Source: Solirubrobacterales bacterium
Lineage (GTDB): Bacteria; Actinomycetota; Thermoleophilia; Solirubrobacterales; Solirubrobacteraceae
Assembly: GCA_027306855.1 (NCBI GenBank)
Contig: DAHUYZ010000001.1
Location: 1-64,000, forward strand
Length of the DNA: 64,000 bases
Direction: 5' to 3'
A program made the translations under genes and the position numbers. Under the pieces are notes generated by a model. That model did no database searches, was not told where the DNA came from, and saw only the letters and a list, made by a program, of their open reading frames with translations. Positions within the stretch are counted from its first letter, which is position 1. Each line of letters begins with the position of its first letter. Shown here in pieces: positions 26,013 through 63,019 of the stretch.

Positions 26013-26287
26013 TCCGGGATCAAGCCTTCGCCGGTGAACTCGACGCCGGCTTCCGCAAGTGTCGTGTCGCTGGGCGGGAGGATCACGTCGGAGGTCTCGA
26101 TCTCCTCGTCTGGAACGAGTGTGCCGTTGGATCGCACGAAGTCGAGCAGCTCGGTAAGCGACCGCACGAAGGCGTCCTCATCGCCCGCGTCGACGGCGTC
26201 ATGGGCGGTGCCCGCGAGTCTGTCGAGCTGGTCGTGGAGGTCGTCGGCGAGCCGGTACTGGTCCTCGCCGGAGATGCGCACGATCAT
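26009..26287 (-). CDS. pspAA: PspA-associated protein PspAA
   Basis: A 92-residue protein beginning MIVRISGEDQYRLADDLHDQ, the hallmark of the PspAA domain, with an acidic C-terminus (DTTLAEAGVEFTGEGLIPD). PspAA pairs with PspA in Actinobacteria and related phyla and is thought to tune PspA oligomers at the membrane. It overlaps the pspA stop by 4 bp, so it is translationally coupled to pspA. It faces pspAB across another 4-bp overlap. Confidence 0.88.
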   Translation of the reverse strand: MIVRISGEDQYRLADDLHDQLDRLAGTAHDAVDAGDEDAFVRSLTELLDFVRSNGTLVPDEEIETSDVILPPSDTTLAEAGVEFTGEGLIPD

Positions 26288-27075
26288 GACGACTGCTCCG
26301 CGCCGGAGCCGCCCGCGGGCGGAGCGGCCTCCGCACCTGCGCCGAGCGCACCGGCGCCCGGAGCGCCCTGGCCGATTTCGCTCTTGAGCTTCTCGAGATC
26401 GTCGTCGACCGCAGACTTGCTGGAGAGCGACTTCAGCTGTCGGTCGATGTCGTCTTCGCCGGGACCGAGCGCGGTGATGTCTTCGAAGGTTCCCGCCGCT
26501 TCGAGCTCTTGCACAGCGTCGGCGCGGGCCTTCATGTTTTCGGTCTTGTCAACCGCGCGCTGCATCGCGAGGCCCACGTCGGCCATCTGCTCGCCGACGC
26601 CGGTTGCCGCCTCGGAGATCCGCACCTGGGCCTCGGCCGCGGAGTACTGGGCCTTGATGACCTCCTTCTTGGTGCGGAACGATTCGATCTTGGCGCGCAG
26701 CTTCTGCTCGGAGTCGGTCAGCTTCTGCTGCTGCTCTTCGAGTTCGGCGACCTGGGTGTCGAGCGACTGCAGCTCGGTCTGCGCGACGTTCTTGCGCTCG
26801 AGGGCCTGGCGCGCGAGGTCTTCCTGCCCCGAGGCGAGCGCCTGACGCGCTTGGGTGTCGAGCTTGACTAGTTGCTGCTGGAGCGTCGTCTCCTGAAGTT
26901 GGAGGCGCTTCTTGGCGGTGACTACGTCGGCGATCCCCTTCTTGACGTTCTGGAGCTGTTCGACCTGCTTCTGATAGCTGTAGTCGAGCGTCTCGGCGGG
27001 ATCTTCGGCGCGGTCGAGCAGCTTCGAGACCTTGGCCTTCACGACGGTGGACATGCGCCCGGTCAAACCGGCCAT
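26284..27075 (-). CDS. pspA: PspA/IM30 (Vipp1)-family membrane-stress protein
   Basis: 263 residues, almost wholly coiled coil. The amphipathic start MAGLTGRMSTVVKAKVSKLL is followed by DRAEDPAETLDYSYQKQVEQ, the standard PspA opening, and by heptad helices to about residue 215. The C-terminus is a low-complexity Gly/Ala/Pro tail. PspA-type (ESCRT-III-like) proteins polymerise on the inner leaflet to stabilise damaged membrane. A strong GGAGGATC precedes ATG 27075. The 54 bp upstream follow an unrelated NlpC/P60 gene, so either a compact promoter lies there or the c-di-AMP-regulated transcript reads through. Confidence 0.94.
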   Translation of the reverse strand: MAGLTGRMSTVVKAKVSKLLDRAEDPAETLDYSYQKQVEQLQNVKKGIADVVTAKKRLQLQETTLQQQLVKLDTQARQALASGQEDLARQALERKNVAQTELQSLDTQVAELEEQQQKLTDSEQKLRAKIESFRTKKEVIKAQYSAAEAQVRISEAATGVGEQMADVGLAMQRAVDKTENMKARADAVQELEAAGTFEDITALGPGEDDIDRQLKSLSSKSAVDDDLEKLKSEIGQGAPGAGALGAGAEAAPPAGGSGAEQSS

Positions 27076-27129: not shown

Positions 27130-27942
27130 CTACAGCCCGGTGGGGTGGCGCACGACGAATCCGGGGTTCGCCGGGCGCAGCGGACGCCAGCGGGGGCCCT
27201 GCTGGTTGGAGGGGTCGTCCGCGGAGCTCGTGTCGAGGCGTAGGCCGGCGACGGTCATGTAGGCGTGGCCACCGTTGGCGAAGATCGTGACCCACATGCC
27301 GGGGCCGCCGGCTGACCATCCTTCGAATTCGGTCGAGTCCATCGGTGTGGAGAGCAGGCCCGCGCCGTGCAAGGCGAAGGAGACGGTGCCCGAGCAGTCG
27401 TAGCCGGGTGAGATGAACGAGGCGTGGCCGCCGCCATAGATGTATGGCAGGCCGATGATCTCATTCGCTGCCCAGATCATGTTTTGGACCGCGGCCGGCG
27501 CGCTCATAGGCGCCGCCGCGTAGCCGTCGACGATGTGCCCGAGACGTCCCGGTACGAGCAGCTGCGGCTTCGTCGCCGCGACTACCCCGACAGGGCTTCC
27601 GCCCGTGAGCGCCTTCTCTGCGCTGACCGTCTGGGGCGTCTGGGTCGTGTACGGGACTACCTGTCCGGTCGCGGTCCTCTCATAGACAGGGCCTGTGTAC
27701 GCGATGTTCGGCGTGGCCGCCGTGATCGGGGCCGCTCCGGGCGCCAGCACGTAGCTTGCCGGCCTGCGCTTCGAGCGGCGGTGCTTGGAGCTTGGGCGCC
27801 GCCCCTTGGAGGGAGCGCTATTGACGAGATTCCCCGCCGCCACACCGCCGGTGACGCCGCTCGCCAAGGCGCCCACAGGCATGGCGAGCATCGCTGCCAT
27901 CGTCATGCATGTAAGCGTCGTACCCAGCGCTCGCAACCGCAC
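27130..27942 (-). CDS. Secreted NlpC/P60-like peptidoglycan hydrolase under a c-di-AMP riboswitch
   Basis: 270 residues with a signal peptide (hydrophobic to about residue 28, ALAS cleavage region), a basic Lys/Arg/Ser linker (43-62), and a C-terminal cysteine-hydrolase domain. Catalytic Cys183 is in SPGYDCSGTVSFAL and His226 in NGGHAYMTVAG, both in the NlpC/P60 pattern. Such enzymes cut stem-peptide bonds for growth or resuscitation. Translation starts at GTG 27942, five bases after GAGG. The riboswitch ends about 14 bases before the start, so c-di-AMP should control expression directly. The middle segment (63-140) is unassigned. Confidence 0.85.
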   Translation of the reverse strand: MRLRALGTTLTCMTMAAMLAMPVGALASGVTGGVAAGNLVNSAPSKGRRPSSKHRRSKRRPASYVLAPGAAPITAATPNIAYTGPVYERTATGQVVPYTTQTPQTVSAEKALTGGSPVGVVAATKPQLLVPGRLGHIVDGYAAAPMSAPAAVQNMIWAANEIIGLPYIYGGGHASFISPGYDCSGTVSFALHGAGLLSTPMDSTEFEGWSAGGPGMWVTIFANGGHAYMTVAGLRLDTSSADDPSNQQGPRWRPLRPANPGFVVRHPTGL

Positions 27943-27956
27943 AGCAACCTCTTTCG

Positions 27957-28083
27957 TCGGCCTGCGGGGTTAGCTGACGGGCTAGCGCTGAAAGAGCCTG
28001 CGCTTTCCACGACTTATGCGTGGAACTCGCCCCAACAACTTGGGTCCCCCGCTCCTTGGCTTCTGACCAAGGATTCGGCGTAT
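27957..28083 (-). promoter_or_regulatory. c-di-AMP riboswitch (ydaO/yuaA class)
   Basis: Read on the minus strand the leader contains CGCCGAATCC, then GCGGGGGACCCAAG, TTGGGGCGAGTT, a variable hairpin (TTCCACGCATAAGTCGTGGAA), and finally CCCGTCAGCTAACCCCGCAG. The last is the diagnostic GUCAGCUAACC..CGUAGGC block of the ydaO element, and the others match its GGGGGAACC and GGGGUGAAUC motifs. The element sits directly before the NlpC/P60 start, a familiar arrangement in Actinobacteria. In known members c-di-AMP binding turns the gene off. Outer limits are approximate. Confidence 0.9.
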
Positions 28084-28129
28084 CGCGCGGCACCCTATCA
28101 AAGCGCAACGACGGTTGCAGAGGGAGGTA

Positions 28130-29356
28130 ATGTGCGCGCCCGTGAAGATCCCGCGCAGACCGCGCTATTTCGCCGCCACTGTCGCGCTGTGCTGCGCGCT
28201 GGCGGGCTGCGGCAAGACGCTGCCGCAAGGCGCCGAACAAGGCGGCCCGCTCAGCGCGGTCGGCCCGAAGGGCGCGGGAGGGCTCATCACGAAGAACACG
28301 ACAAGACTCGGGGGGTCGAGCGCGGTCGTCGACGCCGCCGCAGTCGCGCTGACCGTGTACCCGAGCGCGACTGCCACCACCCGCCCGCAGACGGCGGTGC
28401 TGGTAGACGCAAACGACTGGCCTGCGGCGCTTGCCGCCTCGACGCTTGCGGGCGCGCCGCTGCATGCGCCGCTGCTCTACACCGAAGGAACCACTCTGCC
28501 CGAAGCGAGCGCGAATGCGCTTGCGACGATGCACCCGAGCGGCGCGCCCATGCTGGAAGGCGCGCAGACACTCTCGATCGGGACGGCCGCACCGAGCGGC
28601 TACCGCGCGAAGCAGCTCTCAGGAAGAAGCCCGGCGGCGCTAGCGGTCGCCGTCGAGCGCCTGGCGAGCTCGCTGCGCAAAGCGCGCCCGTCCAAGCTGA
28701 TCGTGACGGCCTTGGACGCACCAGGAGCGATGACCGCGCCGGCCGCGGGGCTCGCCGCCCAGGAGGGCGCACCGATCTTGTTCGTCGAAGCAGACGCGAT
28801 CCCGCACGCCACGCTCGCCGAGCTGACCCGCCTGGGGCACGCCTCGATCTACGTGATCGGTCCAAGCAGCCTGATCAGCGAAGCGGTCGTTACACACCTG
28901 CAGCGCTTTGGCCCCGTCACGCGGATCTCAGGCGCCGATCCGGCCTCGAACGCGATCGCGGTAGCGCGCTTCACGGATGGCTCTTTCGGCTGGGGAGTCG
29001 AGGAAGCGGGACACGGCTTCGCGTTCGCCAACCCTTCGCGCCCGCTCGACGGCCCGGCGGCGGCGCCGCTTGCGGCAAACGGCGACTATGCGCCGCTGTT
29101 GCTGCTCGGCGAAGCGGGCCGCCCCACGAGGTCGCTCGTGCAGTACGTCAACGACCTCCAACCCGGCTATCCAAGCTCGGGCCCCGTACACGGCGTCTAC
29201 AATCACGCCTGGCTAATCGGCGACGAGCGCGCCATCTCACTCGCAACACAGGCCCAGCTCGACGCGATGCTCGAGATAAGCCCGCGCAGATCAACCCAAG
29301 AACCGGCGGCGCCCGAACTGGAAACTTCAACGCCCACTACGACGACAGGACCATGA
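28130..29356 (+). CDS. Cell-wall-binding-repeat (CWB2-like) lipoprotein
   Basis: About 408 residues. A lipobox (CCALAGC) ends the signal peptide, so the mature protein is membrane-anchored. The body has repeated CWB2-like units: TAVLVDANDWPAALAASTLA with APLLYTEGTTLPEASANAL, then APILFVEADAIPHATLAELT with IYVIGPSSLISEAVV, then FADGSFGW-like segments. The Thr/Pro-rich C-terminus (ELETSTPTTTTGP) looks disordered. CWB2 proteins bind anionic cell-wall polymers. ATG 28130 lies 2 bases after GGGAGG, and GTG 28142 is an equally plausible start giving MKIPRRP. It diverges from the riboswitch leader, so both promoters share about 50-150 bp. Confidence 0.75.
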   Translation: MCAPVKIPRRPRYFAATVALCCALAGCGKTLPQGAEQGGPLSAVGPKGAGGLITKNTTRLGGSSAVVDAAAVALTVYPSATATTRPQTAVLVDANDWPAALAASTLAGAPLHAPLLYTEGTTLPEASANALATMHPSGAPMLEGAQTLSIGTAAPSGYRAKQLSGRSPAALAVAVERLASSLRKARPSKLIVTALDAPGAMTAPAAGLAAQEGAPILFVEADAIPHATLAELTRLGHASIYVIGPSSLISEAVVTHLQRFGPVTRISGADPASNAIAVARFTDGSFGWGVEEAGHGFAFANPSRPLDGPAAAPLAANGDYAPLLLLGEAGRPTRSLVQYVNDLQPGYPSSGPVHGVYNHAWLIGDERAISLATQAQLDAMLEISPRRSTQEPAAPELETSTPTTTTGP

Positions 29357-60439: not shown

Positions 60440-61549
60440 TCAGGTCTGTAGGTAGCGGTCCACGAGGTTGATCTCCTGTAGGCGCCGAAGGCCCTCGCGG
60501 ATGTCCTTCGCGCGTATCTCCCCCACTCCCTCAACTGTCTCGAGCTCTGAGTCCGTGGCGGCGAGCAGCTCATCCAGGCCTCCAAACTCGCTGACGATCT
60601 GCGCCACGACGAGCTTGGGCAAGCGTGGGATGCGCCCGAGGATCCGGTAGCCGCGCGGAGCGGCGGGGTAGTCGAGCGTGTTGAGCTTGCGATCGAAGCC
60701 GAGCAGTTCGGCGAGCCGGCCGAAGTCGAGCAGATCTTGATGGGGCAGGCGCCCGACCTGGTCGAGCGCCACTGTATACGCCTCGTCGGTGTGGTCGGCG
60801 AGGTAGTCCTGCACGAGCGCGGCCTTCTCGGCGGCCGTGCCGAGGATCGTCTCCTCCAGCTGCATCTCGATCAGGCGCCCCTCGCTGCCGAGCTCGACGA
60901 TGTAGCGCTCGATCTCAACGGCCATGCGGGTCACCAGCTCCGAGCGCTGCAGCACGGTCAGCACATCGTGTAGGGTCACGCCGCCCTCGAACTCCAGAGC
61001 GGTCAGACGTGTTGATACTTGATCGAGGCGCTGACGGTACTTGTCTAGGGTGGCGAGCGCCTGATTGGCCTTCGACAGCACGACGGTGATGTCTTCGAGG
61101 ATGTACTTGAAGCCGTCGACGTACAGCGAGACGACCTCGCGGCGCTGGGAGATCGCGATCACGAGCGCGTCGGTCTGCTTGGAGACGCGCTCGGCCGTGC
61201 GGTGGCGGGTGCCCGTCTCGTGCGAGAGGATCGTCGGATCGGGCATCAGCTGGACGTTGGCCATCGCGATCTTGGTGGCGTTGGCGTTGAGGATGATCGC
61301 CCCGTCCATCTTGGCCACCTGGTAGAGGTAGGCGGGGGTGTAGTCGATCTCGAGCTTGATCCCGCCAGAGAACAGGAAGCTGAGGTCCTCGGGCTCGCCT
61401 ATCACGATCAGACCGCCGGTGCGCGCGTGCAGGATGCTCTCGATCCCCTCGCGCAGCGCGGTGCCCGGAGCGACCATCTCCAGCGCCCTCACAAGGCGAG
61501 GCTCCAAACGTGCGTCAGTGTCGAAGTCTTCACCGGATCGTGAGGCCAC
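60440..61549 (-). CDS. disA: DNA-integrity-scanning diadenylate cyclase DisA
   Basis: 369 residues. It makes cyclic di-AMP from two ATP. The DAC domain has Asp82-Gly-Ala (AKMDGAIILNANATKIAMA) and the Arg115-His-Arg117 motif (SHETGTRHRTAERV). A long helical linker (about 150-290) and a C-terminal helix-hairpin-helix DNA-binding part (ELETVEGVGEIRAKDIREGL) follow. In the family the activity is curbed at branched DNA. GTG 61549 is the start. It lies between radA and carD; radA commonly neighbours disA and modulates it. Its product should act on the riboswitch at about 28 kb. Confidence 0.95.
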   Translation of the reverse strand: MASRSGEDFDTDARLEPRLVRALEMVAPGTALREGIESILHARTGGLIVIGEPEDLSFLFSGGIKLEIDYTPAYLYQVAKMDGAIILNANATKIAMANVQLMPDPTILSHETGTRHRTAERVSKQTDALVIAISQRREVVSLYVDGFKYILEDITVVLSKANQALATLDKYRQRLDQVSTRLTALEFEGGVTLHDVLTVLQRSELVTRMAVEIERYIVELGSEGRLIEMQLEETILGTAAEKAALVQDYLADHTDEAYTVALDQVGRLPHQDLLDFGRLAELLGFDRKLNTLDYPAAPRGYRILGRIPRLPKLVVAQIVSEFGGLDELLAATDSELETVEGVGEIRAKDIREGLRRLQEINLVDRYLQT

Positions 61550-61609: not shown

Positions 61610-63019
61610 TCAGGCGGCGGCGCGGGCGGGCCGACTCCCGGCGACCGGCAGCGCCGCGGCGAGCGCCTCGCGCAAGGTGGGCGCCTCGCACGCTCCATGT
61701 CCGCTGCCGGTGGGCGCGATCACGTCTTGTAGCCCGTGTCTGGCGGCCTCTTGGAGCCGGCGTTCGGGATGGCCTACCCAGCGCAGCTCGCCGGTGAGAC
61801 CGAGCTCGCCGAAGCAGGCGCGCGGCGCTCCGCCGACGGCGACCCCACGCGCGGCGGACGCAACCGCGAGCGCGAGCGCGAGGTCTACGCCGGGCTCCTC
61901 GACGCGGACGCCGCCGACGACGTTGACGAATACATCGTGACCGCCGACACTGACGCGGCCGTGGCGTCCGAGGATCGCGAGCACAAGCGCGAGGCGGTTG
62001 CGATCGAGTCCAGAGACCACACGACGGGGCTGTTCGAGCTCTGAGGGCGCTACAAGCGCCTGCACCTCGACGAGCAGCGGCCGCGAGCCCTCCATTGCGG
62101 CGAGCACCACGCTTCCTGGAGCGCGCGTCGCCTCGGCTACGAAGCGCGCGGAGGCGTCGAGCACCTCGACGAGCCCACCTTGGCGCATCTCGAACAGGCC
62201 GGCCTCGTTGGTCGAGCCGAAACGGTTCTTCAGCGCGCGCAGCTCGCGGTAGGGGCGCTCGCGTTCACCCTCGAACTGCAGGACGCAGTCGACCAGGTGC
62301 TCGAGCACTCGCGGGCCCGCGAGTGCCCCGTCCTTGGTGACGTGGCCGACGAGCATGACTGCGATATCGCGCGCCTTGGCAAAGTCCATGAGCGCAGCGG
62401 CGACCTCTCTGACCTGGCCGACCGAGCCGGCCGAGCCGGACAGCTCGCCGCAGCGCAGCGTCTGGACGGAGTCGATCACGCAGACGGCGGGCGCATGAGC
62501 GGCGAGCGAATCGAGCACGACGTCGAGGTCTGTCTCGGCGAGCACGGGCACATCGAGCGCGGCGCAGGCCGAGCCCGAGCAAAGTCGCTGTGCCCGCAGG
62601 CGGACCTGCTCGGCCGACTCCTCGGCGCTTACGTACAGCGTCCGGTGCCCGGTGCCCGCGAGGTTGCCGAGCGCCATGTTCGTGAGCGTCGACTTGCCGA
62701 TCCCAGGGGAGCCGCCGAGCAGCACGAGCGAGCCGGGCACGAGACCGCCGCCGAGCACGCGGTCGAGCTCGCCGATGCCGGTTTGAAGGCGCTCTACGGC
62801 AGTGCTTGCGACCTCGCGCAGAGGGACGGGCGGCGCCGGCGCGACCCCCTGGGCGGACCCGCCGCCGCGTCTGGGCGCCCCCTTGCCGTTAGCGCCCCCC
62901 GCGGGAGCGCGCTCCTCGACGAGCGTGTTCCAGGCCCCGCACCCCTGGCACTGCCCGTGCCAGCGAGCGGACGAGAAGCCGCACTGGGAGCAGATGTGGA
63001 TCGTCTGGGGTCGGGCCAC
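61610..63019 (-). CDS. radA: DNA repair protein RadA (Sms)
   Basis: A 469-residue RecA-related branch-migration protein. The zinc finger has Cys10, Cys13, Cys24 and Cys27 (CSQCG, CQGCG). Walker A is LLGGSPGIGKSTLTNMAL, and the family motif LKNRFGSTNE is present. The Lon-like C-terminal domain shows NVVGGVRVEEPGVDLALALA without the catalytic Ser-Lys. GTG 63019 is the start. It precedes disA by 60 bp. The protein acts in recombinational repair and, with DisA, in DNA-integrity signalling. Confidence 0.95.
   Translation of the reverse strand: MARPQTIHICSQCGFSSARWHGQCQGCGAWNTLVEERAPAGGANGKGAPRRGGGSAQGVAPAPPVPLREVASTAVERLQTGIGELDRVLGGGLVPGSLVLLGGSPGIGKSTLTNMALGNLAGTGHRTLYVSAEESAEQVRLRAQRLCSGSACAALDVPVLAETDLDVVLDSLAAHAPAVCVIDSVQTLRCGELSGSAGSVGQVREVAAALMDFAKARDIAVMLVGHVTKDGALAGPRVLEHLVDCVLQFEGERERPYRELRALKNRFGSTNEAGLFEMRQGGLVEVLDASARFVAEATRAPGSVVLAAMEGSRPLLVEVQALVAPSELEQPRRVVSGLDRNRLALVLAILGRHGRVSVGGHDVFVNVVGGVRVEEPGVDLALALAVASAARGVAVGGAPRACFGELGLTGELRWVGHPERRLQEAARHGLQDVIAPTGSGHGACEAPTLREALAAALPVAGSRPARAAA

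What the first reader, a model, noticed from the sequence alone, without database searches (positions are those of the whole stretch)
27957..28083. c-di-AMP riboswitch and the disA synthase in one window
The leader of the NlpC/P60 gene carries the GTCAGCTAACCCCGCAGG core and other ydaO motifs, and disA lies 32 kb away. Together they predict that c-di-AMP, made when DNA is intact, restrains a secreted peptidoglycan hydrolase. The riboswitch leader also shares its upstream region with a divergent cell-wall-binding lipoprotein gene.
Basis: partly seen in the sequence, partly recalled or inferred. Interest (0 to 1): 0.6.

Follow-up and report, generated by a model that had tools for sequence, protein, structure and literature searches.

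The report
c-di-AMP riboswitch before a wall hydrolase
A soil actinobacterium carries a textbook RNA sensor for the signal c-di-AMP in front of a secreted cell-wall-cutting enzyme; the sensor's own knot covers the enzyme's ribosome-binding site, much as already proposed in related bacteria, so it is a well-conserved but ordinary member of a known kind.

Summary
RF00379 (c-di-AMP, ydaO/yuaA) matches window 28090-27944, minus strand, at 78.4 bits (cut-off 38), one base from the GTG start of a secreted NlpC/P60-type protein. disA, the only diadenylate cyclase found in this genome, lies 32 kb away. The genome has five such riboswitches and all 61 genomes searched in its order (Solirubrobacterales) have at least one, so the find is ordinary there. 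Best mechanism: the aptamer's pseudoknot pairs loop CTCTTTC with GAAAGAG, the Shine-Dalgarno sequence of nlpC, so bound c-di-AMP should block translation. Pairing is kept in 19 of 21 orthologues and, with compensatory changes, in 59 of 71 riboswitches of other genera. The same idea is in print for Corynebacterium and Streptomyces. The divergent CWB2 lipoprotein gene is a conserved partner but looks leaderless (18 of 19 orthologues) and starts about 57 bp upstream, so its transcript should not overlap the leader, though the core promoters interleave here. Riboswitch-disA linkage is conserved synteny (9 of 9 family genomes with both on one contig), not evidence of circuitry. Novelty: new member of a known kind. 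Side results: the genus's other riboswitches mostly lack the pseudoknot; one type has a CRP-like site upstream.

The parts
27944..28090 (-). c-di-AMP (ydaO/yuaA) riboswitch aptamer
   Evidence: RF00379, 78.4 bits, full length
27990..27996 (-). pseudoknot 5' strand (anti-Shine-Dalgarno loop CTCTTTC)
   Evidence: 7 Watson-Crick pairs with 27955-27949
27949..27955 (-). pseudoknot 3' strand GAAAGAG; with G27948 it forms the Shine-Dalgarno sequence of nlpC
   Evidence: 6 nt before the GTG; pairing kept in 19 of 21 orthologues
27130..27942 (-). secreted NlpC/P60-type hydrolase, GTG start
   Evidence: profile and fold matches to NlpC/P60; Pfam E 0.059 only
28092..28097 (-). -10 element TAGGGT of the riboswitch promoter
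   Evidence: TANNNT found in 25 of 25 type A loci; at the aptamer 5' end in 131 of 173 riboswitches vs 103 of 7126 background windows
28115..28120 (-). candidate -35 (CTGCAA), 17 nt from the -10
   Evidence: conserved TGCAA in the promoter alignment; role inferred
28104..28119 (-). imperfect palindrome TGCAACCGTCGTTGCG inside the promoter
   Evidence: conserved columns -22 to -7; not a genome-wide motif (6 sites vs 5 in the reversed control)
28128..28133 (+). -10 element TAATGT of the divergent lipoprotein gene
   Evidence: TANNNT 13-16 nt before the start in 18 of 19 orthologues
28142..29356 (+). CWB2-domain lipoprotein, probably leaderless, GTG start (protein begins MKIPRRPRYFAATVALCCALAGCGK)
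   Evidence: PF04122; start
60440..61549 (-). disA, diadenylate cyclase
   Evidence: PF02457, PF10635; DGA and RHR motifs
61610..63019 (-). radA-like gene next to disA (name by recall)
   Evidence: KaiC/AAA/ChlI and rubredoxin-type Zn-ribbon matches

Best explanation
A true ydaO-type c-di-AMP riboswitch that acts as a translational OFF switch on a secreted NlpC/P60 hydrolase. Transcription starts at about 28085, so the mRNA opens directly with the aptamer. When c-di-AMP made by DisA binds, the compact aptamer fold holds its pseudoknot, loop CUCUUUC (27996-27990) with GAAAGAG (27955-27949). The 3' strand of that pseudoknot is the Shine-Dalgarno sequence of nlpC, 6 nt before its GTG. The ribosome cannot bind and less hydrolase is made; when c-di-AMP falls the pseudoknot opens. 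Shown by sequence: aptamer, pairing and its covariation, overlap with the Shine-Dalgarno sequence, lack of a terminator-like site, promoter-like element at the aptamer's edge. Inferred: ligand binding by this copy, direction of control, and that ligand drives the pseudoknot. The divergent CWB2 lipoprotein gene has its own leaderless promoter and is a conserved neighbour, not part of the switch.
For: RF00379 78.4 bits. Loop/tail pairing of 6 or more Watson-Crick pairs: 19 of 21 orthologues (shuffled tails mean 1.3, max 4) and 59 of 71 riboswitches of other genera (shuffled mean 5.0, max 11; tails swapped between loci mean 36, max 43), with compensatory variants such as CTCCTTT/AAAGGAG, CTTCTTC/GAAGAAG, TCACTCG/CGAGTGA. 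The gap from pseudoknot to start codon is 5-9 nt in 19 of the 20 orthologues listed. The start codon lies within 45 nt of the core in 144 of 169 parsed riboswitches. No terminator-like site at 27800-28300. The crystallised ydaO RNA printed in PMC5393176 ends with the same kind of pair, CUCCUUCG/CGAAGGAG, and the paper describes a pseudoknot (passages; the assignment of strands is mine). C. glutamicum nlpC ydaO riboswitch: c-di-AMP lowers reporter protein, not transcript, and a CTCC:GGAG pseudoknot is proposed (PMC9960051, passages). DisA is the only DAC found in the genome.
Against: No ligand or expression data for this organism. Without pseudoknots, RNAfold already pairs CUCUUUC with GAAAGAG in the minimum-energy fold, so the Shine-Dalgarno sequence might be hidden without ligand too. 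Two of 21 orthologues do not reach 6 Watson-Crick pairs (G017 and G006). In G036 the pairing is kept though its 3' strand (AACGA) is not Shine-Dalgarno-like, so the pseudoknot is partly a structural need. For Streptomyces rpfA premature termination is reported (PMC10117811, passages). One conserved A of the GAAU stretch is G here; 27 of 167 readable riboswitches share this.
Confidence: 0.75

Rival explanations
1. The riboswitch works by premature transcription termination inside the leader or early coding region, as reported for Streptomyces rpfA and Bacillus ydaO.
For: PMC10117811 describes c-di-AMP-induced premature termination of rpfA. RNA polymerase pausing or Rho cannot be judged from sequence.
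Against: No intrinsic-terminator-like site at 27800-28300. The aptamer ends within about 20 nt of the start codon, leaving little room for a terminator; start codons are within 45 nt of the core in 144 of 169 riboswitches. The Shine-Dalgarno strand is inside the aptamer.
Confidence: 0.15
2. The aptamer is a relic or an ON switch: the family fold is kept but c-di-AMP does not lower hydrolase synthesis.
For: No ligand data; one conserved A to G change.
Against: 78.4 bits is within the usual range for the order. Promoter edge, pseudoknot and start spacing are conserved in orthologues. C. glutamicum nlpC is an OFF switch.
Confidence: 0.07
3. The main regulation at this site is competition between two interleaved divergent promoters (nlpC leader versus CWB2 lipoprotein), and the riboswitch only fine-tunes.
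For: In this genome the lipoprotein start is 51 nt from the aptamer, against 85-276 nt in the other orthologues, so each inferred -35 falls in the other promoter's spacer.
Against: The close spacing is special to this genome, while riboswitch, pseudoknot and both promoter elements are conserved. The -35 elements are weak guesses; no consensus sigma-70 promoter was found.
Confidence: 0.15

Closest known systems
ydaO riboswitch of Corynebacterium glutamicum nlpC (cg2402), PMC9960051 (passages read)
   Same: Same aptamer family, same kind of target gene (NlpC/P60), DisA as c-di-AMP source, no terminator, proposed loop:Shine-Dalgarno pseudoknot.
   Different: Different order; there nlpC heads a seven-gene operon with GlxR, MtrA and EsrR control; here it is paired with a divergent, probably leaderless CWB2 lipoprotein gene, and the pairing is CUCUUUC:GAAAGAG.
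ydaO-type leaders of Streptomyces cell-wall hydrolases (rpfA; six leaders in S. lividans, one before an NLPC/P60 gene, PMC8079986, passages read)
   Same: Several riboswitches per genome before wall-hydrolase genes; blocking of the ribosome site suggested in print.
   Different: Termination is reported for rpfA (PMC10117811, passages read); the divergent lipoprotein partner is not mentioned in the passages read.
Bacillus subtilis ydaO (kimA) riboswitch
   Same: Same aptamer family RF00379 (it rings in the B. subtilis control).
   Different: Controls a potassium importer by a terminator stem (as told in PMC9960051).

Membership tests
c-di-AMP riboswitch (RF00379) | covariance-model score above the curated cut-off over the full model | tested here: met
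   78.4 bits vs 38, model 1-134
c-di-AMP riboswitch (RF00379) | aptamer pseudoknot between hairpin loop and 3' tail | tested here: met
   7 Watson-Crick pairs
c-di-AMP riboswitch (RF00379) | leader position, same strand, before a regulated gene | tested here: met
   match ends one base from the nlpC GTG; -10 element at its 5' edge
c-di-AMP riboswitch (RF00379) | binds c-di-AMP and changes expression | not testable with these tools
   needs bench work
NlpC/P60 peptidase | Pfam PF00877 above its cut-off | tested here: not met
   13.8 bits vs 23, E 0.059; 5 of 12 proteins of a related set, which also holds five M23 proteins, reach E 0.01
NlpC/P60 peptidase | papain-like NlpC/P60 fold | tested here: met
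   Foldseek: RipB 3pbi E 1.6e-04, 3h41 9.0e-04, 4hpe 1.1e-03, 2hbw 0.027; modest TM 0.26-0.32 on the query, whose N-terminal part is low-confidence
NlpC/P60 peptidase | catalytic Cys and His | tested here: met
   Cys183 invariant, His226 nearly invariant in 14 sequences
DisA | DAC domain, DisA linker and HhH region, DGA and RHR motifs | tested here: met
   the HhH match is below its own cut-off

The most novel reading that the evidence does not exclude
In this genus one aptamer class has split into several switch designs within a genome. The window's type keeps the family pseudoknot and uses its 3' strand as the Shine-Dalgarno sequence. The other riboswitch types have lost the loop:tail pseudoknot (4 of 77 vs 2.5 in shuffles) and must gate the start codon in another way, for instance by P1 next to the ribosome site. 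One of these types adds a CRP-like operator, so cAMP and c-di-AMP would meet on one hydrolase leader.
Probability: 0.35. Interest if true: 0.5.

Novelty: new member of a known kind. Interest (0 to 1): 0.28.

Why it matters
It extends the link between c-di-AMP and wall hydrolases to a poorly studied soil order. The comparative data give broad sequence support to a mechanism proposed in print for single genes: the aptamer's own pseudoknot hides the ribosome site. That can be tested by two-sided mutations. The lineage also offers natural pseudoknot-less variants for asking what the pseudoknot is for.

Tried and rejected
disA linkage as evidence of a local circuit: rejected. The window alone gives chance 0.14 for five riboswitches. 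The linkage is conserved in 9 of 9 family genomes with both on one contig (G000, G002, G008, G016, G025, G031, G033, G035, G036; 22.8-116 kb, always the same strand, riboswitch downstream of disA). In the other family genomes the two are on different contigs or one was not found, so they cannot be judged; in G017 the riboswitch is about 89 kb or more from the ends of its contig, which does not hold disA. Gene-order conservation explains it.

Antisense overlap of the lipoprotein mRNA with the aptamer: considered because ATG 28130 has a Shine-Dalgarno-like GGGAGG. Rejected as the less likely reading once GTG 28142 with TAATGT at -14 matched the pattern of 18 of 19 orthologues (G001 lacks it). 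ATG 28130 is not excluded.

TGCAA-N6-TTGCA as a regulon operator: 6 sites vs 5 in the reversed control, rejected as genome-wide; local function open.

The first pseudoknot scan with a wide region was blurred: 92 of 174 at score 15 or more vs 58 with swapped tails. It was replaced by loop-bounded scans. In one search, 19 of 60 long loops without CTCTTT paired with 6 or more, vs mean 6.6 (max 13) after swapping. Rows dropped: 5 of 174 riboswitches whose hairpin could not be parsed. The 174 are all 121 plus 53 of those listed, which favours high scores. The type A set of 21 was picked by gene neighbourhood and sequence, not by pairing.

The riboswitch beside CWB2 in other families is not the same gene pair: in G037, G040, G044, G046 and G050 it precedes an M23/PcsB-like peptidase; in G039, G042 and G045 the downstream gene was not resolved.

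Consensus promoter scan: nothing. RNAfold of the leader: nested fold only.

Full report
What is there. The only riboswitch in the window is an RF00379 match at 28090-27944 on the minus strand, 78.4 bits against a cut-off of 38. It ends one base from the GTG (27942) of a 270-aa secreted protein. Pfam puts that protein below its NlpC/P60 cut-off. disA is at 60440-61549, has the DGA and RHR motifs, and is the only DAC-domain gene found in this 92% complete genome; each of seven relatives also has just one.

How common. The genome has five such riboswitches; all 61 genomes searched, the window's own among them, have at least one. Downstream products of 30 chosen riboswitches include NlpC/P60, M23, PG-binding, DPBB and transglycosylase families, in line with the published statement that actinobacterial ydaO targets are wall-related (PMC9960051, passages; PMC8079986, passages). 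Of nine named records with close relatives of the host protein, eight are Solirubrobacterales or Solirubrobacteraceae MAGs and one is labelled Actinobacteria.

Mechanism. The aptamer hairpin loop CTCTTTC pairs with GAAAGAG in the tail. With the next G this is a Shine-Dalgarno sequence with a normal gap to the GTG. Across 169 parsed riboswitches, at least six Watson-Crick pairs occur in 19 of 21 orthologues, in 59 of 71 riboswitches from other genera and in only 4 of 77 paralogues of the same genus; shuffled tails give means of 1.3, 5.0 and 2.5. In other genera the true pairing beats tails swapped between loci (59 vs at most 43 in 100 swaps), which is covariation; among the 21 orthologues the sequence hardly varies, so swapping tells nothing there (19.6). 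The crystallised ydaO RNA printed in PMC5393176 carries the same kind of pair. There is no terminator-like site and little room for one. C. glutamicum nlpC was shown to be lowered at the level of translation, with the same type of pairing proposed; ribosome-site blocking is also suggested for Streptomyces, while termination is reported for rpfA. I therefore favour a translational OFF switch. Against it, a nested fold without ligand also pairs these strands, and ligand response is untested.

Promoters. In 25 aligned loci of this type a -10 TANNNT ends 9-19 nt before the aptamer's P1. Over all riboswitches such an element sits at the aptamer's 5' edge in 131 of 173, against 103 of 7126 background windows. 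So the mRNA probably starts with the aptamer. The divergent lipoprotein gene shows TANNNT 13-16 nt before its start in 18 of 19 orthologues, and also in G003 (N-terminus only) and G016: a probable leaderless gene. In the window this moves the start from ATG 28130 to GTG 28142 and puts the -10 at 28128-28133. The transcripts should start about 57 bp apart and not overlap. The window's gap is the shortest seen (51 nt vs 85-276), so the two core promoters interleave here.

Conservation of the neighbourhood. The riboswitch type of the window is present in 21 of 24 same-genus genomes; the three without it are 58-72% complete. The lipoprotein gene lies divergently next to it in 20 of these 21 (one, G003, seen only as an N-terminus at a contig end) and 1.8 kb away in G016. 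The pair also occurs in other genera of the family, for example G026, G031, G033, G035 and G036. disA lies on the same contig in nine family genomes, always on the same strand as the riboswitch, 22.8-116 kb away. In G037, G039, G040 and G042 of two other families the lipoprotein gene is 24-29 kb from disA. This is old gene order.

Literature. Searches (listings) showed no paper on c-di-AMP riboswitches in this order or on this lipoprotein pairing; the library lacks most subscription papers, and four structure or discovery papers were not held.

Verdict. Real, well conserved, with a likely mechanism, and a new member of a known kind.

Noticed in passing
L005 (G000:C55:7402-7596) and its counterparts in other same-genus genomes: A CRP-like TGTGA-N6-TCACA site (at most 1 mismatch; consensus recalled) lies 49-53 nt before the aptamer in 18 riboswitches and at 85 nt in one more: 19 of 174, against 0 of 1697 background windows. 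It suggests joint cAMP and c-di-AMP control, as reported for C. glutamicum nlpC (GlxR).
   Followed up: partly
Genus paralogues, e.g. L002, L003, L004: 77 other riboswitches of the genus mostly lack the loop:tail pseudoknot (4 of 77 vs 2.5 in shuffles); several have loops of 3-6 nt, and some start codons lie 16-20 nt after the aptamer core without a clear Shine-Dalgarno sequence.
   Followed up: partly
window 28104-28119: Conserved imperfect palindrome TGCAANCGTCNTTGCA in the spacer of the riboswitch promoter, with CRP-like 5-6-5 spacing; not enriched in the genome.
   Followed up: partly
L185, L186, L192-L194: In other families the riboswitch near the CWB2 gene precedes an M23/PcsB-like peptidase instead of NlpC/P60.
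   Followed up: partly
window 28142-29356: The CWB2 lipoprotein is encoded as a probable leaderless mRNA throughout the genus, with the same signal in several other genera.
   Followed up: yes
window 26284-27075: A PspA/IM30-family gene (envelope stress, by recall) lies directly downstream of the hydrolase gene on the same strand.
   Followed up: no
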